From Kiritimatiellia bacterium (GTDB lineage: Bacteria; Verrucomicrobiota; Kiritimatiellia; UBA8416; JABMPJ01), in NCBI GenBank assembly GCA_030745755.1, contig JASLOA010000004.1:1-64000 (forward strand): a stretch of DNA of 64,000 nt. The letters run 5' to 3'. A program made the translations under genes and the position numbers. A model generated the notes under the pieces. The model worked only from the letters and a program-made list of their open reading frames with translations, made no database searches and was not told where the DNA came from. Positions 9,645-48,739 of the stretch are shown here, in pieces (the stretch's first letter is position 1; each line of letters opens with the position of its first letter).

Positions 9645-9673
9645 CGCATTATCCTCCTATAGCAGACAGAACC

Positions 9674-9739
9674 ATAGTAACCGGCAGAGGCAGGGCTAGC
9701 CAATGTGCGAGTCCTGTATATTGTCGGCACATTCCCGAC
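9674..9739 (-). promoter_or_regulatory. Shared-motif promoter for the PQQ-propeller gene
   Basis: Read on the minus strand: GTCGGGAATG (9730-9739), 26 nt, TTGGCT (-35, 9698-9703), 18 nt, TACTAT (-10, 9674-9679). A GGAGGA ribosome site precedes the ATG at 9644. The surrounding 87 bp are nearly identical to 25029-25115 and similar to the reverse complement of 30190-30310. Confidence 0.75.
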
Positions 9740-9813
9740 TTCGACGGGGACAACCCGGACCCATAGCCATATCCTCACTCTGGAACGTGCAGTGACAGCA
9801 CTGGCTCCATAAT

Positions 9814-9879
9814 GTCGGAAATGTACCGTAAATCACGGAACTGACCCCCTTGTTGCATACAGCGGGACGCTGGTATATT
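9814..9879 (+). promoter_or_regulatory. Shared-motif promoter for the SGNH hydrolase gene
   Basis: GTCGGAAATG (9814-9823), 26 nt containing the dyad CCGT-AAATC-ACGG, TTGTTG (-35, 9850-9855), 18 nt, TATATT (-10, 9874-9879). AGGAG lies at 9898-9902, ahead of the ATG at 9908. Copies with the same geometry lie at 18742-18807 and 25415-25481. Confidence 0.8.
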
Positions 9880-9907
9880 TGAGTCTAACCCTAAGTTAGG
9901 AGTCATC

Positions 9908-10729
9908 ATGTTCATGCAAGTTCGCAGGCAAATCGGTGCGGTGGGAGTCACGTTGTATCTCACCGCCATTCTGCTTTCGGTCGCGACGGCGCACGGAGCC
10001 GGGGAGCAAGCGGCAGCGGCGATATCGACGCCCACACACCATGCCGTCACAGCGGCACCCAGGATTGACGGGTGGTGGTTCGCTCTACAGGCCGAGAATA
10101 TCGATCTGATGAAGAAGGGCGACATCGATCTGCTGATGGTGGGCGATTCGATCACGCACAATTTTGCAAACGAAAAGGTTGGGCTGAAGGTGTGGGAGAA
10201 GCACTTCGTTCCGCTCAAGGCTATCAATCTCGGGGCTGGCGGCGATCGCACGCAGCACGTCTTGTGGCGTCTGAACCATCTGCCTGTCATGAAGCAGGCG
10301 CCCAAAGGCGCGGTCGTCCTGATAGGCACCAACAACATGGGCTGGGGTACCGATACACCGCAGCAGACCGGCGATGGCATCAAGGCTATTGTCATGAAAC
10401 TCAAGGAGCTCTATCCCGACATGGACGTTCTTGTTCTCGGCGTGCTGCCCCGAAGGCGCAAGCTCGATCACCCACACCGCAAACGAATCATCGAACTCAA
10501 TGCCCTCCTGCCGGACCTGCTCAAAGACATCAAGGGCGTGAAGTTCCTGAACATTGGCCCCGCGTTTCTCGATGAGGCCGGTTTCCTGTCGCCAGAGATG
10601 ATGCCCGATGGCACACATCCCAGCGAGAAGGGTCACGAGATCTTGACCGCAGCCATCATGCCTGAGCTGGAGAGAATGCTCGCTCCAGATGGTGACGCGG
10701 CTCCGGGGGATGACGCCGTTAAGGAGTGA
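9908..10729 (+). CDS. Secreted SGNH/GDSL-family esterase
   Basis: This 273-residue protein has an N-terminal signal segment (residues about 11-30) and a full SGNH hydrolase signature. Block I is VGDSIT (Ser81), block II includes the NLGAGGDRTQHVLWRL glycine, block III is GTNN (Asn142), and block V is PDGTHP (Asp233, His236). The 'GWW..L..ENIDLMKKGDIDLLMVGDSIT' opening is of the type seen in PAF-acetylhydrolase-like bacterial lipases and carbohydrate esterases. It heads the locus-1 operon: the A-type metalloprotease follows 33 bp later and the SUMF1 gene after that. I infer removal of acyl groups from glycans ahead of the proteases. Two broken copies lie at 18837 and 25511. Confidence 0.85.
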   Translation: MFMQVRRQIGAVGVTLYLTAILLSVATAHGAGEQAAAAISTPTHHAVTAAPRIDGWWFALQAENIDLMKKGDIDLLMVGDSITHNFANEKVGLKVWEKHFVPLKAINLGAGGDRTQHVLWRLNHLPVMKQAPKGAVVLIGTNNMGWGTDTPQQTGDGIKAIVMKLKELYPDMDVLVLGVLPRRRKLDHPHRKRIIELNALLPDLLKDIKGVKFLNIGPAFLDEAGFLSPEMMPDGTHPSEKGHEILTAAIMPELERMLAPDGDAAPGDDAVKE

Positions 10730-10762
10730 TCCAGTTCCAGAAAAAGCCACCAAGGAGCATCC

Positions 10763-13700
10763 ATGCATAAGGCTGTGTTGACCGTTATCTCTTTGTTGGC
10801 GTGCCAGGCTGCGATCGCTGCGGGGTACGATTTCTACGCCAACACGGTGTACCCGGGCGCGAACCTGCGGCCGGATGTTGACCTGTACGAGGTCAAGAAG
10901 TCCGGGGGCGGCGATCCGCTGGCCTACGAAAGACGCGAGGTCGATTGGTGGCCACGCAAGGGCGTCGACATCATTGCGGTTAAGAAAGGGATGCCGCTGC
11001 GCACATGGACGTTGCGTGCCGGGCCTCTCAAGACAATCAGTGCCGGCGAAGTGAAGCCGGTGTTGGAGGAGATGGAGACGCTTGAGGCCAAGCAGAACTG
11101 TGGCGATCGCTTCTTCCGCAGGATCAGGGGCTACCTGTATCCGCCGGCAAGCGGCGAGTTCACGTTTGTGTTTGCTGCCGACGATCAGGGCTCGTTGTTC
11201 CTGAGCACAGATGAGAAGCCGGAGAACAAGAAGCGGATAGCCTGGAACCCGGTTTGGGCGAAGCACAGACGATGGAACATGTTCCCCTCGCAGACCTCAG
11301 ACAAGATCACGCTCGAGAAAGGTAAGCGTTACTACATAGAGGTCGTTCACCAGGAACAATCCTTCGGCGACCACGTGTCGGTCGGCTGGAAGGGCCCGAG
11401 CATTGACGCGATCACGATCATTGACGGCGAGTTTCTGTCAGGCCTCGACGGCAAGCGCGGCAAGATCGTGGCCGAGCGCAAGACGACGCCGGTGCTCGGT
11501 AAACGCCAGGCCTGGTCGGCTCCCGGGCAGTTCGAGGCCCACCTCATCGGCTTCCGTGGCATGGGCAACACCATGACCAGCAAGTTTGGCGGCGGCGACG
11601 GCGGTCCGCGTGAGCCTGGCGTAGTCCTGCGCCTGCCGGACGGGCGTAAGCGTTTCTTCGGCACCGGCAGCTTTAGCGAGCAGGACAAGACCTACATCAT
11701 GGACCTCTACGTGAAGGAAATGACGCGGATCAAGAAGGGCCTGGTCAAGAGGGAGTACATCAAGCGGCCGAACGCCAAGTTCCCGGACAGCGCCAAGCCC
11801 GGCGAGCCCGGCACGACGCACGTCGAGAGCGAGCATGTCGTGTGGATGTCCGGTAGTCAGGCGGGGAGCGACGACGATCCGTGGATGAATGAGTTGGAGC
11901 CGGAGAAAGCCCAGTGGTACCGCGATGGCTCGATCGAGTGCGCGGAGTACTTCTGGGCCCTGAACGAATATGCCGGCCACCTCATGCCGTTCTGGGACCA
12001 TACGAAGCTTCACAAATACCAGATCACCGTGCCCGGCACGAAGCGCGACGGCTACCTGGTGATTCCCGGCTATGCCGGCGGCGGCTATGGCGGCTGCGGC
12101 ATCAAGGGCGCCGGCGGCGGTCCGTGGGCCGGCGCGCTGTTCCACGAATGGGGGCACGGTGCAAGGCCAGCCCCGCAAGGGATCGGCAGCGGCGAAGCCT
12201 TGGCCGATACGTACCAGACATTTCCCGATCCGGGCAACATGAAAGGCAACCACCACATCGCCCGGCCTTGGCGCAACGTGTTCAATGGCGATGGCGGCTA
12301 TGGTTTTACCGTCTTCTACAACATGACCGGCGAGGATCCGAACTGGGGCTACGGCGGCTTCGCCGCGATGCCCTTTGGTGAAGCAGAATGCGTATTCATG
12401 ACCATGGCGCGTACCGGCGAGCAGCGCGGGATGTTCAAGGACGGGATACGGGGATTCGGCGACACGGTCGGCGAATACGGCGCGCGACTGACAACCTTCG
12501 ACTGTGAGCTTGAAGATAGTTACCGCCGTACCTACTTCGCGCCTACACGCAACTGGCTCGAGACGGTCGACGCCGACAAGCGGATCTACCGCATCCCACT
12601 CGAGGAGGCATCCGAACCGTTCGGTATCAACATAACCCGGCTCGTGGCCGACGAGCAGGCAGGCAGGATCGTTGTGGACTTCAGCGGCTTGCACGATCCC
12701 GAGCTCTACAGTGACTGGCGCGCCTGCATCATTGCCGTTTCGGCGGACGGTACACGTCGCTACTCCCCGATGTGGAGCAAGGGGAAGATGTCATTGCGCC
12801 TTGAGCCGGGCGATCTGTCGCACTGGCTCAGCGTTGCGGCGACACCGACCGCGCTCTATGCGGCCAAAAGCGGCGGACGTCGCGGCGGTGTGGATAAGAG
12901 GAAGCTATACAGTGGGCGCCATTCGTATCGCTATCCGTGGTCGGTTCAGTTGACCGGCGCGCGTCCGGGGTCCCCGCGTGAATGTCGCGCGGATATGGAT
13001 GATGCCGATCTTCTCTACAAGGTGGTCGATTCGATACCGGCGCCCCATGACAAACCTGCTGGTGCGCGCCTGCTCAAGAAGCTCAAGGCCTTGCGTGCCG
13101 CCCTGGACGAAGAGCGGGACAAGCCCGGCCTGACGGACGCACAATCCTATACCGTCATGAATGTGTATGGTGATGTTCAGACTGAGATCGACCGCATGAG
13201 CAAGGGCGCGCGTCATCCCAACGGCGGCGGCTGGGTGCAGGCTACGGCAACGGTGGCGCCGACGGCTTATGTGGGCCCGAACGCCATGGTGCTGGATGGC
13301 GCTCACGTGTTGGACAACGCTATTATCGATGAGTTTGGTGTCGTAATGGGAACGGCCGTCGTGTCCGGCCACGCGAGAGTTTGCGGGCAGGGCGTGGTCA
13401 GAGACAAGGCGACGGTCGGCGGCTACTCACGTGTGTGGCAGACTCTCAAAGGGGAGGATGCTGCGAAGCTCATGCCCAAACGGCCCGGCGCAAAAGATGT
13501 CCATGAGTTTGGGTTGTGGGCCAACTACGCGATGGATCGGGGCGACAGCACAATACTTGAGGACTGGTACCGGTTCGCGTTTAGCGCCGACAGGGGTTAC
13601 GCCGCAGACCTGACACCCGTGCTCAACGGTTATCTCTATGGGAAGCCGGAATTTGTGGCTGATGGCGAGCATCTCGGATTCCGCTTTGATGGCAAGAGGC

Positions 13701-15745
13701 AACACGGCGAGCTTTGTCCGAGGGTGGCCGATCTTGGGGCCATCACGGTCAACATCTCACTCAAACCCGAGGGTAAGGGCGAACAGGCGATCTTTGATTT
13801 CGGATGTTCGGCGGACGACTGCCTCGTATTGAAGATAGCTGGCAACGGGAAACCTGAGCTGGTTGCGACTGTTGGTGGAGAGACGGTTTTGACGCTGGCC
13901 GGCAAGATGCCGCTCGCCACGGGCGCGTGGGCCAACCTGCGCGTTGAGATTGACGGCAAGAAGGCTGTGTTGTGGGTGGATGGCAAGAAGGCTAACGAGA
14001 AATCGACGACCTTCAGGCCGTGCGACGTGTTCCCGGGCGGAGGCGTGAAACGCAACACCATCGCGGCAGCACGTGACGGCAAGCACCACTTCGCCGGTGT
14101 GCTGGATCAGGTGGTCATCTACCATGCCGTGCACGCAGACTATGCAGGACTTCCAGAGCCCACCCTCGATTCACCCGTGCGCCCGACTCCGGATTACATT
14201 GCTGCGTTGGCAGAAAAGTACGGCAATCTGAAGGCTCTGAATGCCAAGGCCCGCGCAATGGAAGGGGAGCTGATGGCTCCGTACAGGGAAATGGAGAAGC
14301 AATCCAAGGCTCGCCAGCAGGAGATCATGGATCGCTCCCCTGAGTATGTTCAGGCGGTCGCTGATCAGAAGGCGGCAGAAGAGGCCCTTGAGCAGCGAAA
14401 GCGTGAATTGACCAAAGCGTTCGACAAGCTTCCTGAAAACATAGAAATGCAGAAGAAGATCAGCGATGCCCGCGCGAAGAATGATGCGCTGCGCAACAAG
14501 ATCAATGCTCTTGAGCGCAAGGCCTTTGAGCCCGATGAGCAGCTGGTTGCGCTTAAGAAACAGCGGGACGAAGCAGAGACGACGCGCCGAGCCGTTGAGC
14601 AGGAACTGAGGAAGGAATTCGACAAACGGCCAAAGACTGTTGAGGCGCGCGCCGAGATCGATCCGCTGCGCAAGCAGGCGAACGCGTTGAGGTCAGAGGT
14701 GCAGAAGCTGGAGAAGGATGCAATGCAGGCAGACGAGGAGCTCCAGCAATTGCGCGCGAAGCGCGCCAAGTGTGAGGCCGATCGGGGCGCGCGTCAAAAG
14801 GTTCTGAGACCTGAGTTTGATGCCGGCGAGGATGCTGCGGAGTTGGCAGGTAAGGCTGATGATGCGCGCGAACGGCGACACAACAACGAACTGACCAAGG
14901 AGGAGCGCGACAAGGCTGCGAGGGAAGAAGACGCCCTTCGCCGCAAGTGGAATGAGATGTGGCATGGCTTCTTGAGGGCCGACGCGACCTACAATGGGGC
15001 TGATCGAGCTCGGAGCGAATTGAACAGGCCGATCCACGAGCGGGAAACATCGGCTCGCGAAGGTGTCCGCAAGAACAGCGAGGTCGCGCGGAATTACGAT
15101 AAACTGAACAACAAGGTGAGAGAGCTGGATGACCAACTGCGCAGGAAGTTCGATCTGGAGCTCAACAACAATGAGCGATATGCCGCAGCTCAGGCCAGTC
15201 GGATCCAGAGCGACCAGGCGATCCGCAATCGACAGGAGGACTTGCGTGCGGATCTGAGAGTATCGGCGCCGATCTATCGTGAGCAGAAGAGGGCTGAGCA
15301 GCGGCTGCGCAATGCTGAGCAGGAACTACGCGGAACACGCGAGTTGGTTGTGGGCAAGGGCGCTGTCGACCTCGAGCGGAAGGTCGGCGAGACAAAGGGC
15401 GCAGTGGTCGAGGCGGAGAAGGTCGCGTGGAAGGCGTACGGCCCCGAGCGGGGGTGGCTCTACAGCTTCAACAACCAGGGCTATCGAGGATACTACAATA
15501 CGGCCTACAACCACTACCTTGGCGGTCACGCCAAGGCTATTGTTGGTGGCGGCGAGATGCGCGAGGACACCAACTTCCTTGAGGCATTGGCGAAGGCCGT
15601 CTCAGGCGATGATCCTGGCTGGCGTACCAAAGTTGACTGGGATTGGCGTGTGAGAGAGGAGATCGATGGCAGCATCGCCGATGCGCCCCTGATGAGGAAA
15701 TGGCTCGAACGCGTGCGCGGCCCGGTGATGATGGAGAAGCCATGA
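10763..15745 (+). CDS. Giant secreted metalloprotease, type A (PA14, HEWGH, beta-helix, LamG, coiled coil)
   Basis: This 1660-residue protein has a signal peptide (MHKAVLTVISLLACQAAIAA). A PA14-like domain at about 110-215 (YLYPPASGEFTFVFAADDQG) may bind glycans. A zinc-protease core follows, with HEWGH at 461-465 and GEALADTY soon after, which may supply a third ligand. A beta-rich module near 630-720 (LYSDWRACIIAVSADG) is shared with A'. A left-handed beta-helix-like stretch at about 817-900 (HPNGGGWVQATATVAPTAYV, then repeated 'ATV..G.A.V' turns) is followed by a LamG/concanavalin-like domain at about 940-1130 and a long charged coiled coil at about 1146-1546. The peptidase resembles DUF6055/Svx-like or M60-like gluzincins; the assignment is tentative. 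Its N-terminal end is duplicated as a remnant at 19179-19280. Confidence 0.75.
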   Translation: MHKAVLTVISLLACQAAIAAGYDFYANTVYPGANLRPDVDLYEVKKSGGGDPLAYERREVDWWPRKGVDIIAVKKGMPLRTWTLRAGPLKTISAGEVKPVLEEMETLEAKQNCGDRFFRRIRGYLYPPASGEFTFVFAADDQGSLFLSTDEKPENKKRIAWNPVWAKHRRWNMFPSQTSDKITLEKGKRYYIEVVHQEQSFGDHVSVGWKGPSIDAITIIDGEFLSGLDGKRGKIVAERKTTPVLGKRQAWSAPGQFEAHLIGFRGMGNTMTSKFGGGDGGPREPGVVLRLPDGRKRFFGTGSFSEQDKTYIMDLYVKEMTRIKKGLVKREYIKRPNAKFPDSAKPGEPGTTHVESEHVVWMSGSQAGSDDDPWMNELEPEKAQWYRDGSIECAEYFWALNEYAGHLMPFWDHTKLHKYQITVPGTKRDGYLVIPGYAGGGYGGCGIKGAGGGPWAGALFHEWGHGARPAPQGIGSGEALADTYQTFPDPGNMKGNHHIARPWRNVFNGDGGYGFTVFYNMTGEDPNWGYGGFAAMPFGEAECVFMTMARTGEQRGMFKDGIRGFGDTVGEYGARLTTFDCELEDSYRRTYFAPTRNWLETVDADKRIYRIPLEEASEPFGINITRLVADEQAGRIVVDFSGLHDPELYSDWRACIIAVSADGTRRYSPMWSKGKMSLRLEPGDLSHWLSVAATPTALYAAKSGGRRGGVDKRKLYSGRHSYRYPWSVQLTGARPGSPRECRADMDDADLLYKVVDSIPAPHDKPAGARLLKKLKALRAALDEERDKPGLTDAQSYTVMNVYGDVQTEIDRMSKGARHPNGGGWVQATATVAPTAYVGPNAMVLDGAHVLDNAIIDEFGVVMGTAVVSGHARVCGQGVVRDKATVGGYSRVWQTLKGEDAAKLMPKRPGAKDVHEFGLWANYAMDRGDSTILEDWYRFAFSADRGYAADLTPVLNGYLYGKPEFVADGEHLGFRFDGKRQHGELCPRVADLGAITVNISLKPEGKGEQAIFDFGCSADDCLVLKIAGNGKPELVATVGGETVLTLAGKMPLATGAWANLRVEIDGKKAVLWVDGKKANEKSTTFRPCDVFPGGGVKRNTIAAARDGKHHFAGVLDQVVIYHAVHADYAGLPEPTLDSPVRPTPDYIAALAEKYGNLKALNAKARAMEGELMAPYREMEKQSKARQQEIMDRSPEYVQAVADQKAAEEALEQRKRELTKAFDKLPENIEMQKKISDARAKNDALRNKINALERKAFEPDEQLVALKKQRDEAETTRRAVEQELRKEFDKRPKTVEARAEIDPLRKQANALRSEVQKLEKDAMQADEELQQLRAKRAKCEADRGARQKVLRPEFDAGEDAAELAGKADDARERRHNNELTKEERDKAAREEDALRRKWNEMWHGFLRADATYNGADRARSELNRPIHERETSAREGVRKNSEVARNYDKLNNKVRELDDQLRRKFDLELNNNERYAAAQASRIQSDQAIRNRQEDLRADLRVSAPIYREQKRAEQRLRNAEQELRGTRELVVGKGAVDLERKVGETKGAVVEAEKVAWKAYGPERGWLYSFNNQGYRGYYNTAYNHYLGGHAKAIVGGGEMREDTNFLEALAKAVSGDDPGWRTKVDWDWRVREEIDGSIADAPLMRKWLERVRGPVMMEKP

Positions 15746-15764
15746 AAGAGTAGAAATGGGGAAT

Positions 15765-15850
15765 CGGTTAACGAGAACGGCGACGAGAACGGATTACGAG
15801 TAGGGACTCCCTCAATCGTCCACCATTCTCGTCGCCGCTCTCGTTCACCG
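15765..15850. repeat. Palindromic intergenic repeat, copy 1
   Basis: GGTTAACGAGAACGGCGACG at the left pairs imperfectly with CGTCGCCGCTCTCGTTCACC at the right, about 22 of 25 positions in all, around GGATTACGAG and CAATCGTCCACC. Related copies lie at 33634-33752, 33885-34007, 42260-42344 and 63270-63333. This is a REP-like family. Confidence 0.7.
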
Positions 15851-15881
15851 CAGTCGACAGGCAAATGAGGGAAATAACACC

Positions 15882-16856: not shown

Positions 16857-16904
16857 AAATATCAAGTCTAGTGCAGTCGCGCACACGTCACCGACCCTCG
16901 CGCC

Positions 16905-18657: not shown

Positions 18658-18715
18658 GCCAACTGGTGAGCGAACGGGTCCCCTATGGGCTTGCCCTGCG
18701 CCTCGGTGAAGCTCT
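18658..18715. repeat. Promoter-proximal repeat element, copy 1
   Basis: GCCAACTGGTGAGCGAA, then GGGTCCC, then ATGGGCTTGCCCTGCGCCTC and TGAAGC recur at 48582-48641 with few changes. Both copies end about 30 bp before the GTCGGAAATG motif of a promoter. It may be an extended regulatory region or the remnant of a duplicated segment. The rest of 18455-18657 shows nothing coding. Confidence 0.6.
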
Positions 18716-18741
18716 GGCTCGTTGGTTCTAATTTCCATGAT

Positions 18742-18807
18742 GTCGGGAATGTACCGTTAATCACGGAGCTGACCCCCTTGTTGCATGCAGCGGGATGGAG
18801 CTATCGT
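18742..18807 (+). promoter_or_regulatory. Shared-motif promoter in front of the deleted SGNH copy
   Basis: GTCGGGAATG (18742-18751), 26 nt with CCGT-TAATC-ACGG, TTGTTG (18778-18783), 18 nt, TATCGT (18802-18807). AGGAG precedes the ATG at 18837. The -10 box is weaker than in the 9814 copy. Confidence 0.65.
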
Positions 18808-18836
18808 TTGCTTCTAATCCTAAGTGAGGAGTCACT

Positions 18837-19145
18837 ATGGTCATGCGAGTTCGCAGGCAAATCGGTGCTGTGGGAGTCACGCTGCATCTCACCGCCATGC
18901 TGCCTTCGGTCGCGACGACGGACGGAGCCGGGCAGCAAGCGGCAGCGACGATATCGACACCAACACCCCACGCCGTCACACCGGCACCCAGGATTGACGG
19001 GTGGTGGTTCGCTCTACAGGCCGAAAGCATCGACCTGATGAAGAAGGGCCGCGAGATCTTGACTGAAGCCATCATGCCTGAGCAGAAGAGAATGCTCGGA
19101 ACAGATGGTGACGCGGCTTCGGGCGATGGCGACGTTCAGGAGTGA
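18837..19145 (+). pseudogene. SGNH hydrolase copy with a 513-bp in-frame internal deletion
   Basis: The 102-residue frame is the paralogue of 9908-10729. Residues 1-71 follow it closely (VRRQIGAVGVTL, PRIDGWWFALQAESIDLMKK), then it jumps to EILTEAIMPEQKRMLGTDGD, the C-terminus. The missing 171 codons contain all catalytic blocks (GDS, GTNN, DGTH). In the intact gene the deletion ends lie at two AGAAGGG words (10113-10119 and 10626-10632), and one AGAAGGG remains here, so slippage or short-homology recombination explains it. The frame is open with promoter, ribosome site and signal peptide, so a small secreted peptide could still be made, but no esterase activity is possible. Confidence 0.85.
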
Positions 19146-19178
19146 TCGAATTCCAGAAGCATCCACCACGGAGAATCC

Positions 19179-19280
19179 ATGCATAAGGCTGTGTTGATCG
19201 TTATCTCTCTGTTGGCGTGCCAGGCTGCGATCGCGGCGGATTATGATTTCTACGCCAACACGATGTACCCGGGAGCGTAG
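19179..19280 (+). pseudogene. 5' remnant of a type A metalloprotease gene
   Basis: The 33-residue frame (LIVISLLACQAAIAADYDFY, then ANTMYPGA and a stop) is nearly identical to the signal peptide and first residues of the A-type gene at 10763. It stands the same distance behind the SGNH copy as the intact A gene stands behind the intact SGNH gene. After GGAGCG the homology stops. Confidence 0.85.
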
Positions 19281-19296
19281 GGCAAGAGGGGGTCGA

Positions 19297-19412: not shown

Positions 19413-22400
19413 TCACCGCCCAGCCCTGCCGTCGCCTGCCCCCTGTGCCGCCCGCTCAAGCTCTGCGGCCGTGCGCGGATAGTCATAGGCCTTCAGGTCA
19501 GCGATAGCACCTTTGAACATGTACTTCGCGCCTTCCGTGGGGTTCAGCATGCCTCCGATGGTCATCGGGTAGCCGCCGATGGTGTCCATTGTGGCAAAGT
19601 CGCTCTTCCCATCCAGTTTGCCATCGCGGTACACGCGCACCTCGGTCCGCGCGCCGCCGTCGTAGACCCATGCCAGGTGCGTCCACTTGCCTGTCACATC
19701 GCGATTGGTGTTCCAGGCGACTCCGGCTCGGCTCGGCTTCACGAGTGCCTTCCTCTGCCTTCCGCCGAATCCGAGCGATACATGGCGCCGCGCGACTTCC
19801 TTGTTCATTGCGAATAGCCTGGCGTCACCGTCCTCGTCGCAATAGGCCCACATCTCGATGGTGAACGGATGGTCGTCGGTCAGCCCTTTGGGCAACGTGA
19901 TGTCAGACTGAAGCATCGCCTTGCCGTTGAACACAACGGCCTTGCGCCCGCCAAGCGTCTTCACTTCCGCGCTGCGATCGATATCAACCGACATCCCGAA
20001 CTGGCCGTTCAGCTTGCCGGTGTTCTCAATACGCCCAATCGCCTCACCATCCCTGGCATTTCCGACGTTGATGGCCACCTGCAGGTTCCGCGTGGCAGCG
20101 CTCTCGCCGGCCGTGAGCTTCTTGATGTCGCCAGCGCTCAACGCCTTGTCGAAGATGCGTAGCTCACGCAAGATGCCGTACTCCCCCGCATCACCAATGG
20201 TGAGCCTGCCCGCACGCGCAATACCGTAATCCACCTTCTCCTCTCGGAGCAAACGGCCGTCCCGGTAGAGCTTCGCTATGCCATTCTCATACGTAACGGC
20301 AAACTTCATCCACTGGCATACCAGTCCCGCATTGCCGATTGGGTAGTTGAACGACTTCTCTCCGCGTCCTCTATTCCCTTGCTTTCCCCATTCTAGGCAG
20401 GGGCGGCCGGACGCGCCGGACAACACAATACCTGTGCTATCGGGTGCCTCGCCCCACGACACAATCCGTTGTTCGGCGGCGCCGTATCTGCTGCCGAAAT
20501 CATAGTAGATGGTGAACGGACCGTTCGTCAGGCAATCCGGCGCAGCGAACGAAGATTCAAGCCTCAGGCCCTTTGCGAGCTGGACGCCGGTCCGTCCCCG
20601 GAACTCCTGGGCCGTCAGCGCAAACGTGGTACCAAGCGTCGCCGGCACGAATGTGCCGCCAGCCTTGCCCCTGTTATTCCATGCGGCAAGCTTACCGTCG
20701 GACAGCTGATCGGCCTCCAAGTCCAGGATGACACCTTCACGGGTAGTGAAAGACCACAGTGGGCCATTGCCTGCACGCCAGTAGTAGACCTTGCCCGGTG
20801 CCAGCTCAGGCCTGAACTCGCCGGGCGCGAACACTCCCACAGGCTTTACTGCATTCGGTGCATCGCCAAGATAGACCTGCTCCTTGTCACCACCAGCTAA
20901 TCCTTTGCCCCAGCTCAAAGCCGGACGCCGACTCGCAACCGCCATACCACGATCTGCCGGCACCGGCTTGTGCGGCACGGCGATGAAATCATTCCTGCTG
21001 TTCTCGGCCAGTTGCTCGGCAGTCAGCGCAAGCTGATGCACGCGCAGCACGGCTATCGCGCCATTGAATGACTTGCGCCAGTTCCAGCGCTGTCTGTCAT
21101 AGTGCCCGCCGAGATGCAGGTAGTCACCATCGTCGGCCCACAACACGCCATCCTGCTCGCCCACCTTCTGGCCGTTGCGGTAGATCTCGGTCTTGCCCGA
21201 GACCCGTGCCGAGTCGGTCATCCGCTTGCCCTTCTTCGCCTCACCCTTGAAGACCATGGCCATATGCTGCCACCCCGGCTGCAGGTGCGCCGCGCCGAGC
21301 TGGAAGCTCTTGCCCCACTCGAGGACGACCTCGTCACTCGACTGAGCGTCAGAGTAGACCCAGGCTTCGAGCGTCCCGCTGACCGGACCTTCAGCAGCGG
21401 CACTGCCCTTGGCATCGATCACGCCGATCATCCTGTCCATACCGTCGAAGTATGGCGCCGGTATGCCTGCGACGTCCTGGAACTTGGGCGCACTGCCGGA
21501 ATAGTGCCAGAAGCTGTGGATATCGTTGTGAATCCGGCCCTGCAGCGTGCCGTGGTTGGCAGCGCTCCGTAGCCACGGCTTGTTCATGCGTTTTGAGTAG
21601 AGCGGACGATGATACTCGGCGCCAACTTCACTGAGGAACCGCGTGTCGATGTCGACATAGAGCTTCCCACCCACATGCGGGGGAACGCGCCGCTGGTAGA
21701 AGGCGAGTTCGTCCGCAAAATGGTTTTCCACCTGCTCGTGATCGATGTCGTAGTTGTAGGCGCGGACATGCGCGACTGCGCCTTTGAAGCCGCCGACAAC
21801 CTGCCCGTCGGTAACACCGCCGCCAACGAACATGCGCACGTTAGGCTTCAGCGCCAGCTTGTGCTTGGCGCGCTGGATCTCCTTCCCATCAACGTAGATC
21901 AGGAACTTACCTTCGGTATCATCCAACCCGCCGCTCTCGAACACCCAGGCCACGTGATGCCAGCCGTCAGCAAGCGCAACGCCAGATACCTCACCGGAAA
22001 TCCCCGCGTTGAGCTGGTAGGCAATCGTATTGGGTCCCACTTTGAGCCGGGCGCCCTCTGAGTCCGGCCCCCAACCGAGAATAGTCTGTGTGCCATCAGC
22101 TTCCGGACCGCAGTTGACCCACAGTTCGACCGACCACTCGCGGTTGTCCTGGAAGCCCTGCTTCGTGTCCAGGTTCCAGAGCATGGCATCATCGCCATCA
22201 AAGAGAACCGCCGTGACCCCGTCAATCGTCTCAAGGCTGGGGTCGCCGAGATTCTCGAATGCACCTGTGGACTCGGGATCTCTGACAGGGCGCGTGGTCC
22301 CGTCAGGCAGGTCCTGTATATTCACCAGGCCGCCGCGATTCTCCCAACGCGTCACGGTGTCATTCCGACTGACGGCCAGTCCGTCGGCTGGATGCAATTC

Positions 22401-25040: not shown

Positions 25041-25106
25041 ATAGTAACCGGCAGAGGCAGGGCCGGCCAATGTGCGAGTCCTGTATATTGTCGGCACATT
25101 TCCGAC
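25041..25106 (-). promoter_or_regulatory. Shared-motif promoter for the type B gene
   Basis: On the minus strand: GTCGGAAATG (25097-25106), 26 nt, TTGGCC (25065-25070), 18 nt, TACTAT (25041-25046). The block 25029-25115 is almost identical to 9662-9751 upstream of the propeller gene. Confidence 0.75.
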
Positions 25107-25414: not shown

Positions 25415-25481
25415 GTCGGAAATGTGACGTGAATCAACGGAACTGACCCCCTTGTTGAATAAGGCGGGACGATGATATAGT
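25415..25481 (+). promoter_or_regulatory. Shared-motif promoter before the third SGNH leader
   Basis: GTCGGAAATG (25415-25424), here 27 nt (one more than elsewhere), TTGTTG (25452-25457), 18 nt, TATAGT (25476-25481). GAGGAG precedes the ATG at 25511. Confidence 0.6.
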
Positions 25482-30233: not shown

Positions 30234-30298
30234 GTCGGAAATGTGCCTGAAATATACAGGACTCGCACATTGGTAGTCCTGCCTCTACAGCTTACAAT
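30234..30298 (+). promoter_or_regulatory. Shared-motif promoter for the SASA-SUMF1 gene
   Basis: GTCGGAAATG (30234-30243), 26 nt with the dyad CCTG-AAATATA-CAGG, TTGGTA (30270-30275), 17 nt, TACAAT (30293-30298). The block 30190-30310 is similar to the reverse complement of 9662-9784. The transcript would have a leader of about 310 nt containing the repeat at 30349-30480. Confidence 0.7.
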
Positions 30299-42139: not shown

Positions 42140-42169
42140 GATCAAGTTTCCCCGCTTGTTGTGTGGGTT

Positions 42170-42185
42170 CTGTCAAAGCTGACAG
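42170..42185 (-). promoter_or_regulatory. Small palindrome upstream of the fucosidase gene
   Basis: CTGTCA-AAGC-TGACAG is a perfect 6-bp inverted repeat with a 4-bp centre, about 30 bp before the fucosidase start. It may be an operator; no clear -35/-10 pair was assigned. Confidence 0.4.
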
Positions 42186-42259
42186 CCCGTATTCTTGCCT
42201 AATGCTATTTGTTACAGGGGTGGCCATGTTGTGACCTTCTCCCGTTTTACTGCCATGTC

Positions 42260-42344
42260 GGTGGACGATAGCGGGCGACGAGAGCGGTGGACGATGAGAC
42301 GCTCTCCACTCGTTACCCGCTCTCGTCGCCCGCCATCGTCAACC
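42260..42344. repeat. Palindromic intergenic repeat, copy 4
   Basis: GGTGGACGATAGCGGGCGAC and the following GAGAGCGG pair with CCGCTCTCGTCGCCCGCCAT then CGTCAACC. It is the most symmetrical copy of the family. It fills the gap between the fucosidase promoter and the end of the B' gene; 42345-42443 is AT-rich and shows nothing else. Confidence 0.75.
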
Positions 42345-42443
42345 CAGTCCCCTCTTCATGACTTTTTCTTAAAATTTTTTGACCGAATCGTTGTGTGTTC
42401 AGTTCTCTCAACTTCCCGTTGCAGCCCCTCAGTCGTAGAAGCG

Positions 42444-45400
42444 CTAGTCCGAGATCTCGTCTTTCGCCAACGGATGATCGGTGAGCATTGCTTTGTCCGC
42501 GGCGGATTGGATTTCTTTTGCGGTTCGGGGGTAGTTGTATACCGTCAGCGAGCGGATGGCTCCGTTGAAGGGGTTGGTTTCGCCTTGGGTGTCGCCGAAA
42601 CCGGCGCCGAGGTACATCGAGTATCCGGGCAGTGTCGCGATCGACGTGGTGCGGTCGGCGACTTGTTGGCCATTGATGTAGATGCGGGCCTGGCTCCGCG
42701 GTCCACCGTCGTAGACGTAGGTCACGTGCATCCACTGGTCGGCTTGGACGCCCTTCGGGAGCGAGCGGTTGTATCCGACGCCCTGAGAGATGCCCGTGTT
42801 ACCCGGGGAACCGAAGTAGGTTTCTCCCCGCACGCGTCCAAGCTGTGGCGACAGGGCGAAGACGGCCTCTTTCGTATTCAGCTTCTTGGGACGAATCATC
42901 ATCTCGACCGTGAACGGGCAATCGGCCGTCAGCGTGGCCGGCGTCTTGGCTGTAGACATCATGTAGGTCGTCTTGCCGTTGAACTCGACGGCTCGCAGCC
43001 CATCTACCGTGGTGACGGTCGGCGTGTGGTCCACATCGGGAATCGTCGCGAACGAACCCTTCAGCGACCCGGTGTTCTTCAGCATCGAGACCCGCTGATT
43101 CTTTTTCACGTCTTGGCCCACGCGGACGTTGACCAGGGCTTCATCGTCGCCCACGGTGTGGTCCCTGGCGAGGGCCTGGACCTCGTCGGCCGACAAGGCT
43201 CGCCCCAGAATCTTCAGCGAATGCAGGTAGACATAATTGATGCCGTTTTGCTTCGATCCGATCACCAGCTTACCGTCGCCGGGGATGTCGATCCCGTCGC
43301 ATTCCATCTCGTTGGTCATTCGCCCATCGACGTAATATTTCAGCATCTTGCCGTCGTAGACGAGCGACACGTTGCGCCACATGTAGGCCATGTGCGGATT
43401 GAAATCGTTGTCCTCACGAATGTTGTAATGCGTTTCACGTTTTGGGGCACGGGAGAACGCAACCTTCACCTGTTTCTTCTGTGCGTCGAGGCTATGTGCC
43501 GTAAACGCGATCGCGTCTTGCGGCAGCTGCACACCGTAGTCAAAGGCGGCGCCGTCACCGCACCAGCTCAGGACGCGGGGCCCGCGCCGTTGGCTGACCT
43601 CGTCGACGATTTGGACGTTCAGCGTGAACGGACCTTTTTTCAGCGCTTCGGGCGTGTCGAACGTTGCGGTCAACGTCCGGCCGGGGGTCATCTTGATCGC
43701 ATGGACCTTATTGAACACCATGCCGGTGAGACCAAAGATGTCGCCGCGTTTTCCTGCGACGAAATCGACCTTGGCCGACCCGGTGTTTTTCCATTCGTCC
43801 AGCTTGCCGGGGGGCAGGGCCTCGGCCTGCAGTGCGATCAGCGCCGGCGGGGTCTTGCGGGCCGGCGGAACCACGCCACTGCCGCCCTTGGCGAACACAT
43901 GCGACGTCGCGTTGGCGGCGATTTGCTCGGGGGTCAATTTGCCCTTGTGCAAACGCACGGCTGCGATGGATCCGTTGAAGTAGTCCTTCCAGTTCCATCG
44001 GATATCGTCATATCGTCCGCCGAGGTGCATTCGCTGATTCGCCTTGGGTGCGAGCGCGCCGACGGTTTTCTTGATCGGGCTGCCGTTGACGTACACGTTC
44101 GCGGGGCCATCAAACACCACCGTCACCGCCTGTTGTCCCTTGGGCAGGTTGTCGGCGGTCAGCAGGAAATCGCCCCATTGCAGAATCACTTCGCCGGGGT
44201 TCTCTGCCTGGTTGTCCAGCCACAATTCCAGCGTGCCGGGTGCGTTCCTGATGAGCTCAGCGGTCGGCTCGAACCCAGAGACCATGCGGTCCATACCGTC
44301 GAAGGTCGGGATCTTCCCGCCCAGCTTCTTTCTCAATACCGGCGTGCTTCCGGAGTATCCCCACGTCGTCGCGTGAATATCGTTATGCACGCGCCCGCCA
44401 AGGATGCCCTTGTTGCTCCAGCTCCGCAGCCACGGTTTTCGCAGGCGTTTGGGGTACGTCGGCTGATGATACCGCTTCTGCGTGTCGGCCAGCAGGCGCG
44501 CGTCCAAGTCGATGAACAACTTGTCGGCCACCGCCAAATCGTCGCGGGTGAAGCTCGGCAATTGCATCGAATAGAACCGACGCACTTGATACTCGGTCAG
44601 GTCGTAATCGTAAATCTTCACCGACGCCAACGCGCCAAGCAAACCGTCGCTGACCTTGCCGCGGGCATCCACTCGACCGCCGACATAAATCGACTGCTTC
44701 TGCGGAATGCTGAATGTCATCGGCGTCTCGTGTTCGAGGATTCCGTTCACATAGACGCGGTACAGGCCCACGCCGGTGTCGATCGAGCCTTCTTCGCCCG
44801 GCCCCTTGTAGACCTGTATGACATGGTTCCAGTGGCCCTTCGGCAGGTTCAGCCTGGCGGTCTTCTTTTGGCCATGATCGTAGATCGTTCCGTCGCGGTT
44901 CAGATAGAAGCCGGTTCCGTTGTCATCTTTTTCGCCCCATCCGGCGATGAGTTGCTCGGCGCTGCCGGAGGCGTCCGCAGCTTGGTAGACCCAGTATTCG
45001 ATACTGAACGGCAAGTTTCGGCTGAGGTTCCATTTGATCTTCTCGTCCCACTTGAATGCGGTGGTTCCGTCGAAGCTGACGGCAGAGACGCCGGCGACGG
45101 TGGTGAGTGTGGGCTTGCCGCCGTAGGGGAGGAAGCTTCCCTTGGTTCCGGGTCTGGGGTAGAGCCGGGCGGTGGTTCCATTCCAGGCTTTGATCCAGGC
45201 ATTGTTGTTCCACTTCGTCACATGTCCCGACGCATCGGTTTCGACATCGGTGTTTGCATCGAGATCGACCATCCGATCGCCCGGAAGGTAGTCCGTCAGC
45301 GCGACGGCCTGTCGATAGTTGTTACTGAACATGGCTTCGCGTCTGGCAGGATCACCAAATGCCTGCATGAAGACGGCCATATTCTCGTGGTAGTTGTTGG

Positions 45401-47945
45401 CGTTGTATCCGGCGAGACCGATGTTGGTATCGGCGGTCCCCAGCCAGATATCCTCGATCAGAGAGAAGTACCCAGGAACACCAAAGCCCAGCAGATTGAA
45501 GACCTCGTGTCCCATCTCGTGCACGAGCAGCAAGTCCTTCGATTCGACTCCGCCGTAGCTCTGTCCCGTGCCAAACCCGCGGAAGAAGGGCTTGCCTGAT
45601 CCTTCATAGGAGGTGAGGGTGCTTGCGATGTTTCGCTGTGCTGCCAGGGCGAGCAGGTATCGGTTTTTTCCGTACATCTCGGTGGTTGCGATGACTTTGT
45701 GGAGCATCATGTCCTGATCGGATCCCATCGAGGCCACGGCGCCGGGGCCGAAGTCCAACTTCACTATTTTCGCACCGCGACCGGCGGATTGGTTTGAGTC
45801 CAGGTTCGGCAACGACGAGGGAATGTCTCGCTCGGGGGTGAAGTAGGGCTTGGTTGTGAACGACCACGTGTCGCCCTTGGCGATGTAGGAGGTGAGCAGT
45901 TTTCCGGGTTTCATTCCGTGGTGGGGTTGGCCTTTAACCTTCGGTTCGGTTCCCGGCTCGCGTGTTTCGTATGCGATATCGACGCGCCAGTAGTAGGTCT
46001 TTCCGGGAACGGTCTCGGTTCCGTTCAGCTGATACTCCGAGGTGCCTCCCCAGCGACCGGGGCGTACCCGCGCGAGGGGTTCGGTCATCGCGTCGAGTTC
46101 CTCTGGTGTTTCAGCTACATACAAATGCTGAGAGGAGGCGGCCGGCGCCGGGCCGCCCGTCCATTTCAGCGTGTAGATCGTGTTGACCGATTCGCCCTCA
46201 GCCGGGTTGGGGTCTCGTGCGATTCCCGTGCCCGCGGAGAACGACCAGACGTCGCCTGCGACCAGGAGATTTCCCTTGTCGTCCAGCTGGTCGACGGCCC
46301 AGAAGTAGGTGCGTCCGGGAAGTGTGTCAAACCGCGGCAAGGAGGACTCTTTCGTGCGTGTGGCCTTGGCGCTCCGGTTCTTCACGGCCTCTTCGTCCAG
46401 CGACAGGGCGACATCGTATTGCGTCGCCTCCGGGTGGGCGGCAGACCAACGCGGCGTGGCAAACTGTGCCATCATCTTTTCTTTGTCCGCCGGTTGGGGG
46501 CCCGCTGCCTTCGTGAACCCGGCATTCAGGCGGACACCCAGTGGCGTCATCGCGTAGTCGTACAGCCGTAGGTCGGCGATTCCACCGTCGAGGACGCTGA
46601 GCACATCGGGTCCCTGAGCGGCCATATACCACGCCGATCCCCAGTTTCCGCCAAGGAAGAAATGTTTCCGCCTATCTTCGGGGATGGTTTTTCCGGGCGT
46701 CTTTCCATCTTCGCTGGGGGTGACGAACGATCCGGGCCCATACATCCACCGCCGCATCGGATTGAGGGTGTAGCTCCCGTGGTCCGTGCCGTAATCGATG
46801 CTCATGATTCGGTAGTAGTATCGGGTTCCTGGCTCGAGCTTCTCGAACGAGAATTGCACCTCGCCCTCCGGTGCCCACGCGATCGACGCACACTGATCCC
46901 AACGCCAATGCCGCATCTGGAACCAATGCTTATGGTCGACCTTGTCGAGGTAGCACGAGACGGTGGCCGTCCCATTTTTCGCAAGCAACTGCGCCTGGAC
47001 CGTCGCGGACTCGGACGTCAGCTTCGTGACGGTGGGTGTCTCGACAATACTGTCGTACTGCGTTTCGTAGGTCATCTCGCCATCGACATAGACGCGGAAC
47101 ACCCCATCGTCTCCGCCGGTGTAGGTGTAGGTCACATGCTGCCATCGGTCGGCGGGATGGATCCCGGTGTGTCCCTTGCGGTCGCCCTTCGTGCCGCGTG
47201 CTGTTTTGCTCATGCCGCCGATATCGCACTCGCGTCCATGGTTGAGGATCGTGCCGTGGTCACCCCCGATGCTATGCCAGGACAGAAGCGTTCTCCCACC
47301 CTCGACGGATGCATCGGTTTGTGTGTACAGCCAGGCCGAGGCGGTGAATGGCTGCTTTTGGTCCAAACGATCCTCGAGCGTGAAGCTGCTGGTCATCATC
47401 TCGAACTTCGGTGGCGCGAACTGCCCCTTCTTGTTGGTCTCAAAGAAGATGCCTTTTCTTCCCTGCACCTCGCGAACGTGCGGCGGGTAGTTGATCTTCA
47501 CAAACTCGCCCCCGAGCGTGCCGGTGTTTTTTACTTCCTTCAGCGGCCCGATGGGCAAATCGTCCACCGTGACGTGGATGAGTCGGTTTTTGCTCTTTTC
47601 ATCACCGGAGAAGGTCCAATGCGTCATTTCCCTGGGGAAGTCACGCAGAGCCATCTGCGAAAGCAGGTAGCACATGTCCGGGGCCGAGAAGTAAAAGAGC
47701 GGAACCCGCAGGTTCTTGCCCGTCTTGGGGTCGATGAGATTCGCGCGGTACTCTTCGAGCGAGTCTAGCTTGCCCCGGAAGTTTCCCGTCTTGTTCCCCC
47801 AATGCTGGAATACTCTGTCCTGGGTCGGTTCCGGGGTGAAGGCCTGGGTCGTCTTCTCAATTCCCGCATGGGCTATCCCGCCACACAGCGTCGCCAATAC
47901 GAGGAGTCCTACCGTCAACGTCCGATACCGATTCGAATGAGTCAT
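42444..47945 (-). CDS. Giant secreted metalloprotease, type B' (HEMGH with multiple LamG domains)
   Basis: This 1833-residue protein is the paralogue of the gene at 19413. The start at 47945 is preferred for GGAG six bases upstream and a clean signal peptide (TLTVGLLVLATLCGGIAHA); the frame stays open to 48083. Domain order: an N-terminal module (VPLFYFSAPDMCYLLSQMAL), LamG (KNTGTLGGEF; WQHVTYTYTGGDDGVFRVYV), fibronectin-like segments (GRTYFWAVDQLDDKGN), a protease core with LLVHEMGHEV (HEMGH at about 809-813) and NNYHENMAV about 40 residues later, then four more LamG modules (WNHVIQVYKG; WGDFLLTADNLPKGQQ; KMLKYYVDG; WMHVTYVYDGGPRSQARIYI). The order equals that of B. No GTCGGAAATG-type promoter was found in front of it. 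Confidence 0.8.
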   Translation of the reverse strand: MTHSNRYRTLTVGLLVLATLCGGIAHAGIEKTTQAFTPEPTQDRVFQHWGNKTGNFRGKLDSLEEYRANLIDPKTGKNLRVPLFYFSAPDMCYLLSQMALRDFPREMTHWTFSGDEKSKNRLIHVTVDDLPIGPLKEVKNTGTLGGEFVKINYPPHVREVQGRKGIFFETNKKGQFAPPKFEMMTSSFTLEDRLDQKQPFTASAWLYTQTDASVEGGRTLLSWHSIGGDHGTILNHGRECDIGGMSKTARGTKGDRKGHTGIHPADRWQHVTYTYTGGDDGVFRVYVDGEMTYETQYDSIVETPTVTKLTSESATVQAQLLAKNGTATVSCYLDKVDHKHWFQMRHWRWDQCASIAWAPEGEVQFSFEKLEPGTRYYYRIMSIDYGTDHGSYTLNPMRRWMYGPGSFVTPSEDGKTPGKTIPEDRRKHFFLGGNWGSAWYMAAQGPDVLSVLDGGIADLRLYDYAMTPLGVRLNAGFTKAAGPQPADKEKMMAQFATPRWSAAHPEATQYDVALSLDEEAVKNRSAKATRTKESSLPRFDTLPGRTYFWAVDQLDDKGNLLVAGDVWSFSAGTGIARDPNPAEGESVNTIYTLKWTGGPAPAASSQHLYVAETPEELDAMTEPLARVRPGRWGGTSEYQLNGTETVPGKTYYWRVDIAYETREPGTEPKVKGQPHHGMKPGKLLTSYIAKGDTWSFTTKPYFTPERDIPSSLPNLDSNQSAGRGAKIVKLDFGPGAVASMGSDQDMMLHKVIATTEMYGKNRYLLALAAQRNIASTLTSYEGSGKPFFRGFGTGQSYGGVESKDLLLVHEMGHEVFNLLGFGVPGYFSLIEDIWLGTADTNIGLAGYNANNYHENMAVFMQAFGDPARREAMFSNNYRQAVALTDYLPGDRMVDLDANTDVETDASGHVTKWNNNAWIKAWNGTTARLYPRPGTKGSFLPYGGKPTLTTVAGVSAVSFDGTTAFKWDEKIKWNLSRNLPFSIEYWVYQAADASGSAEQLIAGWGEKDDNGTGFYLNRDGTIYDHGQKKTARLNLPKGHWNHVIQVYKGPGEEGSIDTGVGLYRVYVNGILEHETPMTFSIPQKQSIYVGGRVDARGKVSDGLLGALASVKIYDYDLTEYQVRRFYSMQLPSFTRDDLAVADKLFIDLDARLLADTQKRYHQPTYPKRLRKPWLRSWSNKGILGGRVHNDIHATTWGYSGSTPVLRKKLGGKIPTFDGMDRMVSGFEPTAELIRNAPGTLELWLDNQAENPGEVILQWGDFLLTADNLPKGQQAVTVVFDGPANVYVNGSPIKKTVGALAPKANQRMHLGGRYDDIRWNWKDYFNGSIAAVRLHKGKLTPEQIAANATSHVFAKGGSGVVPPARKTPPALIALQAEALPPGKLDEWKNTGSAKVDFVAGKRGDIFGLTGMVFNKVHAIKMTPGRTLTATFDTPEALKKGPFTLNVQIVDEVSQRRGPRVLSWCGDGAAFDYGVQLPQDAIAFTAHSLDAQKKQVKVAFSRAPKRETHYNIREDNDFNPHMAYMWRNVSLVYDGKMLKYYVDGRMTNEMECDGIDIPGDGKLVIGSKQNGINYVYLHSLKILGRALSADEVQALARDHTVGDDEALVNVRVGQDVKKNQRVSMLKNTGSLKGSFATIPDVDHTPTVTTVDGLRAVEFNGKTTYMMSTAKTPATLTADCPFTVEMMIRPKKLNTKEAVFALSPQLGRVRGETYFGSPGNTGISQGVGYNRSLPKGVQADQWMHVTYVYDGGPRSQARIYINGQQVADRTTSIATLPGYSMYLGAGFGDTQGETNPFNGAIRSLTVYNYPRTAKEIQSAADKAMLTDHPLAKDEISD

Positions 47946-48199
47946 GAGGGTCTCCATAGGGGTGTCCGATTCTCGAACACGAGCTCGTACGTACCATAGC
48001 GTCCAGTCGGCATCGTTGGGGCTCAGGGCCAGACCCAGGCTTAGCACTTTGCTAGCAACCTCTCTCACCGCTCCTACGTACATCGCGTTATCCTTCTGCC
48101 TCTGTAATCAGCTTGGCCTTTACTGCAGTCTCACCCCATCACCCATCAAGGCCGCGAAAGACCTGCACCGGACCAGTTAATGTTCTGCGACCCCATGAC

Positions 48200-48479
48200 C
48201 TATGGACTGCACCGTAACACCAGACGCTTGGCCGCTTTGGCCCATTGCGTCAGCCGTTCTGGATGTTCGTGGCATGTGGCGATTTCGTGGTGGATCACTT
48301 CGACATGGCAGCCTTTGGATTTCTCCAGGATGTCCTCGAGATATACCATGTCCTGCGCCACATCCCACCCCGGTCGTGATATCGATGCAGCACTGGGTTT
48401 GATCGAGTAGATGTAGCCGGTACCAATTGCTTCCGCCGCGACGGCGACTCTCTCAAGCGGATTCTGTGTCGTTTTTCAT
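48200..48479 (-). pseudogene. Uroporphyrinogen decarboxylase-like gene, collapsed remnant
   Basis: On the minus strand an ATG at 48477-48479 (MKNDTESA, then a stop) lies behind a promoter. In another frame the C-terminal part of a URO-D-like protein follows: PLERVAVAAEAIGTGYIYSI, KPSAASISRPGWDVAQDMVY, LEDILEKSKGCHVEVIHHEI, then HPERLTQWAKAAKRLV and a stop. The pattern 'VE.I..DI.T....P.RL..W...A' is that of the family's last helices. The barrel is missing, so the gene has both ends but lost its middle. Related URO-D-like proteins often act as cobalamin-dependent methyltransferases. Confidence 0.65.
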
Positions 48480-48488
48480 ACCACCAAA

Positions 48489-48553
48489 GCTTTACGCATC
48501 GATAGCCTTGCGATCAAGAGTACGCTTCCGTAGAAAACAGGGACATTTCCGAT
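48489..48553 (-). promoter_or_regulatory. Shared-motif promoter in front of the URO-D-like remnant
   Basis: On the minus strand: ATCGGAAATG (48544-48553), exactly 26 nt, TTGATC (48512-48517), 17 nt, TAAAGC (48489-48494, weak). GGTGGT precedes the ATG at 48479. Confidence 0.5.
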
Positions 48554-48581
48554 GCTCAGGTGAGAGCATGCGTATGGCGGT

Positions 48582-48641
48582 GCCAACTGGTGAGCGAATG
48601 GGGTCCCATATGGGCTTGCCCTGCGCCTCGATGAAGCCCTG
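48582..48641. repeat. Promoter-proximal repeat element, copy 2
   Basis: GCCAACTGGTGAGCGAATGG, then GTCCCATATGGGCTTGCCCT and GCGCCTCGATGAAGCC match 18658-18715. It lies between two divergent shared-motif promoters (48489-48553 and 48674-48739). The following GACGTGCAG-ACAGCAC words also recur at about 9786-9800. Confidence 0.6.
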
Positions 48642-48673
48642 GGACGTGCAGCAACAGCACGGGGCTACAGGAA

Positions 48674-48739
48674 GTCGGAAATGACACCCTAATGTACGGT
48701 TTCGTGCCGTTGGTGTGTGCCCCTCGTCGAACCTATACT
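48674..48739 (+). promoter_or_regulatory. Shared-motif promoter for the MoxR/vWA operon
   Basis: GTCGGAAATG (48674-48683), 26 nt, TTGGTG (48710-48715), 18 nt, TATACT (48734-48739). Transcription would begin about 80 nt before the ATG at 48829. The geometry equals that of the propeller, SGNH and B promoters. Confidence 0.75.

What the first reader, a model, noticed from the sequence alone, without database searches (positions are those of the whole stretch)
9662..48739. A shared promoter with a fixed-distance upstream motif: candidate regulon for secreted degradation genes and a MoxR operon
Eight promoters carry the 10-mer GTCGGAAATG (at most one change), then exactly 26 nt (27 in one), then TTGnnn, then 17-18 nt, then a TAnnnT-type -10 box. 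Sites: 9739-9674(-), 9814-9879(+), 18742-18807(+), 25106-25041(-), 25415-25481(+), 30234-30298(+), 48553-48489(-), 48674-48739(+). The 26-nt spacer often holds a short dyad (CCGT..ACGG, CCTG..CAGG). Downstream genes are the propeller protein, SGNH esterase, type B protease, SASA-SUMF1, the DUF4159/MoxR operon and three decayed genes. Some copies are homologous blocks, but the 48674 and 48489 copies share little besides the motif and spacing, which argues for selection. A fixed phase to the -35 box suggests an activator touching RNA polymerase.
Basis: seen in the sequence. Interest (0 to 1): 0.85.

Follow-up and report, generated by a model that had tools for sequence, protein, structure and literature searches.

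The report
Arabinose-type AraC regulon spread by promoters
The repeated DNA motif is very probably the docking site of a sugar-sensing (arabinose-type, AraC-family) gene switch that turns on about 20 promoters for glycan- and protein-degrading genes in an uncultured Verrucomicrobia-like bacterium, and several of these promoters were copied as ready-made units onto unrelated genes.

Summary
The eight sites are real: 8 found versus 0.03 expected in a Markov model of the window. They are part of a longer element, GTCGGAATTGTnCC-n-TATTnTACGGTTCTGGCCCCTTG, then a -10 box: two half-sites 21 bp apart abutting the -35. The genome holds 20 copies; 25 control genomes have none below E=0.004. Seventeen lie on an inferred 217-kb scaffold that joins the window's contig to two others.

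That scaffold also encodes an AraC-family regulator flanked by two copies, one driving an FGGY kinase plus L-arabinose isomerase, the other a GH4 enzyme. In 18 of 23 loci of this regulator and its relatives, the best match of the locus lies directly upstream of the regulator gene, pointing away from it, usually towards a GH127 beta-L-arabinofuranosidase gene. Regulator and motif co-occur (p=8e-8).

Best reading: an L-arabinose-type AraC regulon, local in most of the phylum, expanded here to about 20 promoters. Blocks of 65-90 bp, from operator edge to just past the -10, are shared by unrelated genes, so part of the expansion was promoter copying. There are no expression or binding data; inducer and substrate are inferred.

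The parts
9674..9739 (-). operator (two half-sites) + -35 + -10, promoter family A; drives 6609-9644(-)
   Evidence: 33.7 bits
9814..9879 (+). operator + promoter, family B; drives GDSL esterase 9908-10729
   Evidence: 39.1 bits
18742..18807 (+). operator + promoter, family B, before a GDSL paralogue with an internal deletion
   Evidence: (30.4 bits)
25041..25106 (-). operator + promoter, family A (95% identical to 9739 over 86 bp, unrelated downstream gene)
   Evidence: (34.6 bits)
25415..25481 (+). operator + promoter, family B, 27-nt spacer; promoter plus signal-peptide remnant
   Evidence: (37.4 bits)
30234..30298 (+). operator + promoter, family A; drives SASA-FGE protein 30617-33640
   Evidence: 29.0 bits
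48489..48553 (-). operator + promoter, own family; upstream of giant laminin-G gene 42444-48083(-)
   Evidence: 28.7 bits
48674..48739 (+). operator + promoter of the DUF4159/MoxR operon; conserved before the orthologue in genome G001
   Evidence: (32.8 bits)
6609..9644 (-). PQQ/BamB-like beta-propeller protein, 1011 aa
   Evidence: Pfam PF13360 7e-33
9908..10729 (+). GDSL/SGNH esterase with signal peptide, 273 aa
   Evidence: Pfam PF13472 2e-24
10763..15745 (+). DUF6055/PA14/laminin-G protein, probable same operon as 9908
18837..19145 (+). GDSL paralogue truncated by an internal deletion
19413..24983 (-). giant laminin-G/fn3 protein, 1856 aa
30617..33640 (+). SASA sialate-acetylesterase + FGE (SUMF1-like) protein
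42444..48083 (-). giant laminin-G protein, 1879 aa
48757..50421 (+). DUF4159 protein, first gene of the operon
   Evidence: PF13709 7e-56
50435..56865 (+). MoxR ATPase, DUF58, BatA/VWA and GATase1-like genes of the same operon

Best explanation
The motif is the operator of an AraC/XylS-family activator. A dimer sits on two directly repeated half-sites 21 bp apart, the second running into the -35 box, and recruits RNA polymerase when its sugar is bound, most likely L-arabinose or an arabinoside. The candidate regulator is the 277-aa protein at C30:5605-6438 of the same genome, about 196 kb from the window's start on an inferred scaffold. In most of the phylum it appears as a local switch next to a GH127 beta-L-arabinofuranosidase gene. 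In this lineage it commands about 20 promoters: L-arabinose isomerase plus an FGGY kinase, GH127, GH4, Xaa-Pro aminopeptidase, parts of a peptide-type ABC importer, giant secreted proteins and a DUF4159/MoxR operon. Part of the growth came from copying whole operator-promoter units onto unrelated genes. Shown by sequence: motif, spacing, regulator-operator linkage, target genes, copied blocks. Inferred: binding, activation, inducer, and the substrate.
For: Regulator C30:5605-6438 has AraC_binding + HTH_18 domains, and its best NCBIfam model is E. coli-type AraC, matched over both domains (2e-21). It lies between two operators that face the FGGY kinase/L-arabinose isomerase pair and GH4. L-arabinose isomerase exceeds its NCBIfam cut-off, 808 against 622 bits. 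Co-occurrence of regulator and motif in 346 genomes: 5 of 8 against 3 of 338, p=8e-8. A matrix trained only on the four expanded genomes ranks the site upstream of the regulator first in its locus in 18 of 23 loci, always divergent, 16 of them scoring above 8. GH127 lies behind the operator in 9 of 13 such loci tested. Two further genomes, G375 and G379, have their only hit upstream of the regulator homologue. The self-similarity of the motif peaks at an offset of 21 bp. Regulon GH127s are closest to solved beta-L-arabinofuranosidases, 4qjy (4e-219) and 3wkw (8e-145). Contig overlaps of 139 and 133 bp with reading frames through them place window and regulator on one scaffold.
Against: No expression or binding data. 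Genomes G001 and G024 carry 11 or more sites but no regulator homologue was found at E<=1e-12; they may be incomplete, or another AraC protein may act there. Regulators of G065 and G032 have only degenerate sites, and 4 of the 23 loci have none. The kinase is not recognised as ribulokinase. Some GH127 enzymes elsewhere act on carrageenan under an AraC regulator (PMC5698469), so the sugar is not certain. The 21-bp peak is modest: p=0.03 after testing 10 offsets.
Confidence: 0.83

Rival explanations
1. The sites are passive by-products of repeated DNA (tandem gene duplication, gene conversion) and not a selected regulatory site.
For: Families A and B are homologous blocks, and 66-126 bp repeats link several intergenic regions.
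Against: About 13 unrelated promoter families in one genome. The same operator stands before orthologous DUF4159 genes whose flanks have diverged to background. The operator is found alone upstream of the regulator across the phylum.
Confidence: 0.04
2. The operator is real but is bound by a different AraC-type or other regulator in the expanded lineage, while the linked AraC gene only shares an ancestral site.
For: G001 and G024 have many sites but no detected orthologue; G000 has 21 HTH_18 matches and G001 has 40.
Against: In G000 the orthologue is present and flanked by two operators. In G022 a 94%-identical regulator fragment sits next to a site at a contig end, though that contig may be misbinned. 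Co-occurrence p=8e-8.
Confidence: 0.1
3. The regulator is the right one but senses another glycan sugar (for example a carrageenan- or pectin-derived sugar) and not L-arabinose.
For: GH127 includes carrageenan 3,6-anhydro-galactosidases under an AraC regulator in Zobellia (PMC5698469). Sulfatase-like reading frames lie on the same contigs (inspection of the ORF list).
Against: Operon with L-arabinose isomerase; GH127s closest to beta-L-arabinofuranosidases; an alpha-L-arabinofuranosidase C-terminal domain protein nearby.
Confidence: 0.2

Closest known systems
E. coli AraC and the araI1-araI2 operator of araBAD
   Same: AraC_binding plus HTH_18 protein next to arabinose genes; two operator half-sites where binding at the proximal one recruits RNA polymerase (PMC4760080). 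From memory, those half-sites are direct repeats about 21 bp apart that touch the -35.
   Different: Score far below the AraC equivalog cut-off (76 against 208 bits); different half-site sequence; about 20 dispersed targets, including giant secreted proteins and a MoxR operon.
Bifidobacterial AraQ and BauR arabinose regulons (PMC5928203)
   Same: Arabinose or beta-arabino-oligosaccharide control, with a GH127-type enzyme in the BauR1 regulon; AraQ is a documented lineage-specific expansion to about 20 genes.
   Different: Regulator families listed there that I read are LacI or ROK type, not AraC family; AraQ expanded into central metabolism, here into secreted degradation genes with copied promoters.
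Zobellia CgrA carrageenan regulon (PMC5698469)
   Same: AraC-family regulator next to GH127 genes; dispersed, sugar-induced regulon with sulfatases.
   Different: Bacteroidetes; carrageenan substrate. No comparison of operators was made here.
Putative mobile promoters / promoter propagation (Matus-Garcia et al. 2012, cited in PMC9208149; paper itself not held)
   Same: Near-identical promoter blocks upstream of unrelated genes (concept from memory and from the citing paper).
   Different: Here the copied unit is a regulated operator-promoter of one transcription factor, in one case extended by a signal peptide.

Membership tests
AraC/XylS transcription factor family | C-terminal two-HTH domain (HTH_18/HTH_AraC) | tested here: met
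   PF12833 2e-19, PF00165 1e-13, above cut-offs; model resembles AraC-family structures
AraC/XylS transcription factor family | N-terminal cupin ligand-binding domain | tested here: met
   PF02311 1e-10, above cut-off
AraC orthologue (NCBIfam NF007860) | score above the equivalog cut-off | tested here: not met
   75.8 bits against 208; so 'AraC-like', not filed as AraC
L-arabinose regulon | regulator linked to arabinose catabolic genes | tested here: met
   L-arabinose isomerase above cut-off, behind an operator
L-arabinose regulon | response to L-arabinose | not testable with these tools
   needs an experiment
Class II activator promoter | operator adjacent to or overlapping the -35 at fixed spacing | tested here: met
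   44-site alignment, conserved TTG and -10
Class II activator promoter | activator dependence of transcription | not testable with these tools
   no expression data
Mobile promoter | near-identical promoter upstream of non-homologous genes with sharp ends | tested here: met
   9739 vs 25106, 95% over 86 bp, different Pfam families
Mobile promoter | a carrier or terminal repeats explaining movement | not tested
   no systematic search for insertion sequences or terminal repeats was made

The most novel reading that the evidence does not exclude
A local arabinoside switch became a 20-promoter regulon largely by copy-and-paste of a minimal operator-promoter cassette (about 65-90 bp; once with a signal peptide, in frame, onto an unrelated giant secreted protein), not by point mutation of existing promoters.
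Probability: 0.4. Interest if true: 0.75.

Novelty: new member of a known kind. Interest (0 to 1): 0.6.

Why it matters
It gives a specific, testable transcription factor, operator and target list for an uncultured Verrucomicrobia-like lineage rich in giant secreted proteins, and assigns a probable control signal to proteins of unknown function (laminin-G giants, DUF6055, DUF4159/MoxR). It also offers a natural case for an old question: whether regulons grow by mutation of resident promoters or by copying regulated promoters. Here copied and independent promoters can be told apart in one regulon.

Tried and rejected
Chance occurrence and pure duplication were rejected. A palindromic operator was considered: the best inverted match (0.42) nearly equals the direct-repeat score (0.445), but it pairs half-site 1 with a window that overlaps itself, so the 21-bp direct repeat is preferred. 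G022 was not counted as firm evidence for spread across families: its site-bearing contigs are 92-98% identical to G000, more than the sister genome G001, which suggests misbinning or recent transfer. G024 may have the same problem. The idea that the target is a hydroxyproline-rich glycoprotein (GH127, Xaa-Pro aminopeptidase, peptide importer, and in G024 a 4-hydroxyproline epimerase just above its cut-off) is attractive but unproven.

Full report
OBSERVATION. The eight promoters exist as described. The whole arrangement occurs 8 times in the window and on average 0.03 times in 60 Markov resamplings, maximum 1. The 10-mer alone is less telling, 12 hits against 5.3 expected; it is the arrangement that is informative.

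GENOME-WIDE SCAN. The window is C4:1-64000 of a 3.07-Mb, 63-contig genome. A sequence-only profile from 16 sites (R1), then from 44 sites including relatives (R2), gives 20 sites in this genome at E<1e-5: C4 eleven, C19 three, C30 three, and one each on C48, C5 and C39. In 25 control genomes the best hit has E=0.005. The 44 sites entered the model, so their scores are partly built in; the control genomes and the regulator-locus test below are independent of that.

THE ELEMENT. Consensus AAGTCGGAATTGTGCCGCTATTATACGGTTCTGGCCCCTTG, about 21 bp, then a TAnnnT -10 box. The motif's self-similarity is highest at an offset of 21 bp, two helical turns (0.445; p=0.03 over 10 offsets). Half-site 2 ends in the -35.

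THE REGULATOR. Among the AraC-family (HTH_18) genes of the genome, one, C30:5605-6438, lies between two of the sites: C30:5534(-) facing an FGGY kinase and L-arabinose isomerase, and C30:6794(+) facing a GH4 and a GH32 enzyme. It has AraC_binding and HTH_18 domains; its best NCBIfam model is AraC itself, matched over both domains but below the equivalog cut-off. The predicted model (pLDDT 84) matches AraC-family structures, including the sugar-binding domains of BgaR and AraC at domain level.

CO-OCCURRENCE. Of 346 genomes of the class, 8 have the regulator (E<=1e-22) and 8 have the motif (E<=1e-4); 5 have both, p=8e-8. In G050, G114, G322, and on closer search G313 and G109, the site lies directly upstream of the regulator gene. 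Across the phylum 51 of 388 genomes have a homologue, and two further genomes, G375 and G379, have their only motif hit upstream of it. As a held-out test, a matrix built from 37 sites of G000, G001, G022 and G024 only was scanned over 23 regulator loci: in 18 the top position of the locus lies upstream of the regulator and points away from it, 16 of these with a score above 8. Some loci are close relatives, so they are not all independent. G000 itself, whose sites were in the training set, ranks second there because its other regulator-flanking site ranks first. The gene behind the operator is GH127 in 9 of 13 loci examined.

TARGETS. In the window: a beta-propeller protein, a GDSL esterase, giant laminin-G proteins, a SASA-FGE protein and a DUF4159/MoxR/DUF58/BatA operon. 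Elsewhere: L-arabinose isomerase and FGGY kinase, GH127 (two), GH4, Xaa-Pro aminopeptidase, dipeptide-type ABC ATPases, a URO-D family protein, a GH63/MGH1-like enzyme, and a DUF6055 protein; the C48 site runs into a contig end, but in G001 its counterpart precedes a family-5 solute-binding protein. In G024 a 4-hydroxyproline epimerase carries the site. Regulon GH127s resemble known beta-L-arabinofuranosidases best. The theme is arabinose-containing, possibly protein-bound, glycans; this is inference. GH127 enzymes are known to act on extensin-type arabinosides (PMC10850190, PMC6085000), and others on carrageenan (PMC5698469).

PHYSICAL LINKAGE. C4's right end and C19's left end overlap exactly by 139 bp, C19's right end and C30's left by 133 bp, and reading frames run through both joins. 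So 17 of 20 sites and the regulator lie on an inferred 216.6-kb scaffold, 7% of the genome (p about 2e-17; 7e-10 after collapsing copied families). Same-genus genomes G002-G004 lack both motif and regulator at these thresholds.

COPIED PROMOTERS. Pairwise comparison shows blocks that start at the operator's left edge and end just after the -10, between genes of different families: 9739(-) and 25106(-), 95% over 86 bp; GDSL 9814 and Xaa-Pro aminopeptidase C19:11929, 83% over 75 bp; G001 Xaa-Pro aminopeptidase and a DUF6785 gene, 88% over 83 bp; the kinase promoter in G000 and GH4 in G024, 84% over 67 bp. These blocks include the -35/-10 spacer, which is not conserved between families, so they point to copying, not convergence. 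At C4:103971 the block continues through the leader and the 31-residue signal peptide, then switches to an unrelated 2140-aa protein. By contrast, the orthologous DUF4159 operon with a kept site in diverged flanks shows that the operator is also held by selection. How the units moved is unknown.

LIMITS. No wet data. G001 and G024 lack a detected regulator. G022, and perhaps G024, may contain misbinned contigs, so the expanded regulon is firmly seen only in G000 and its sister G001. Nearest named relative: Verrucomicrobia bacterium AH-558-J18, 86% identity for one window protein. Expansion of arabinose regulons (AraQ, PMC5928203) and mobile promoters (cited in PMC9208149) are known, so the kind is not new; the regulator, the operator and the scale of promoter copying within one regulon are what this adds.

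Noticed in passing
G000 C4:103971-104160 (L039 start; outside the window): Promoter, leader and 31-residue signal peptide highly similar (about 85%) to those of the GDSL gene at 9812, fused in frame to an unrelated 2140-aa laminin-G/endonuclease-like protein.
   Followed up: partly
window 9780-9805 and 48640-48665: Short dyads GTGCAGTGACAGCAC and GTGCAGCAACAGCAC upstream of two operators; possibly a second operator.
   Followed up: no
window 18658-18722 and 48582-48647: 65-bp repeat, 89% identical, upstream of two of the promoters, containing TGGGCTTGCCCTGCGCCTCG.
   Followed up: no
window 18734-19277: GDSL paralogue with a clean internal deletion of about 505 bp but intact promoter and signal peptide.
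   Followed up: partly
G022:C68, C32, C398: Contigs 92-98% identical to G000 although the genome is placed in another family: misbinning or recent transfer.
   Followed up: partly
L200, L205, L215-L231: An AraC-type regulator divergent from a GH127 gene with a shared operator between them recurs across the phylum; a ready target for study in cultured members.
   Followed up: partly
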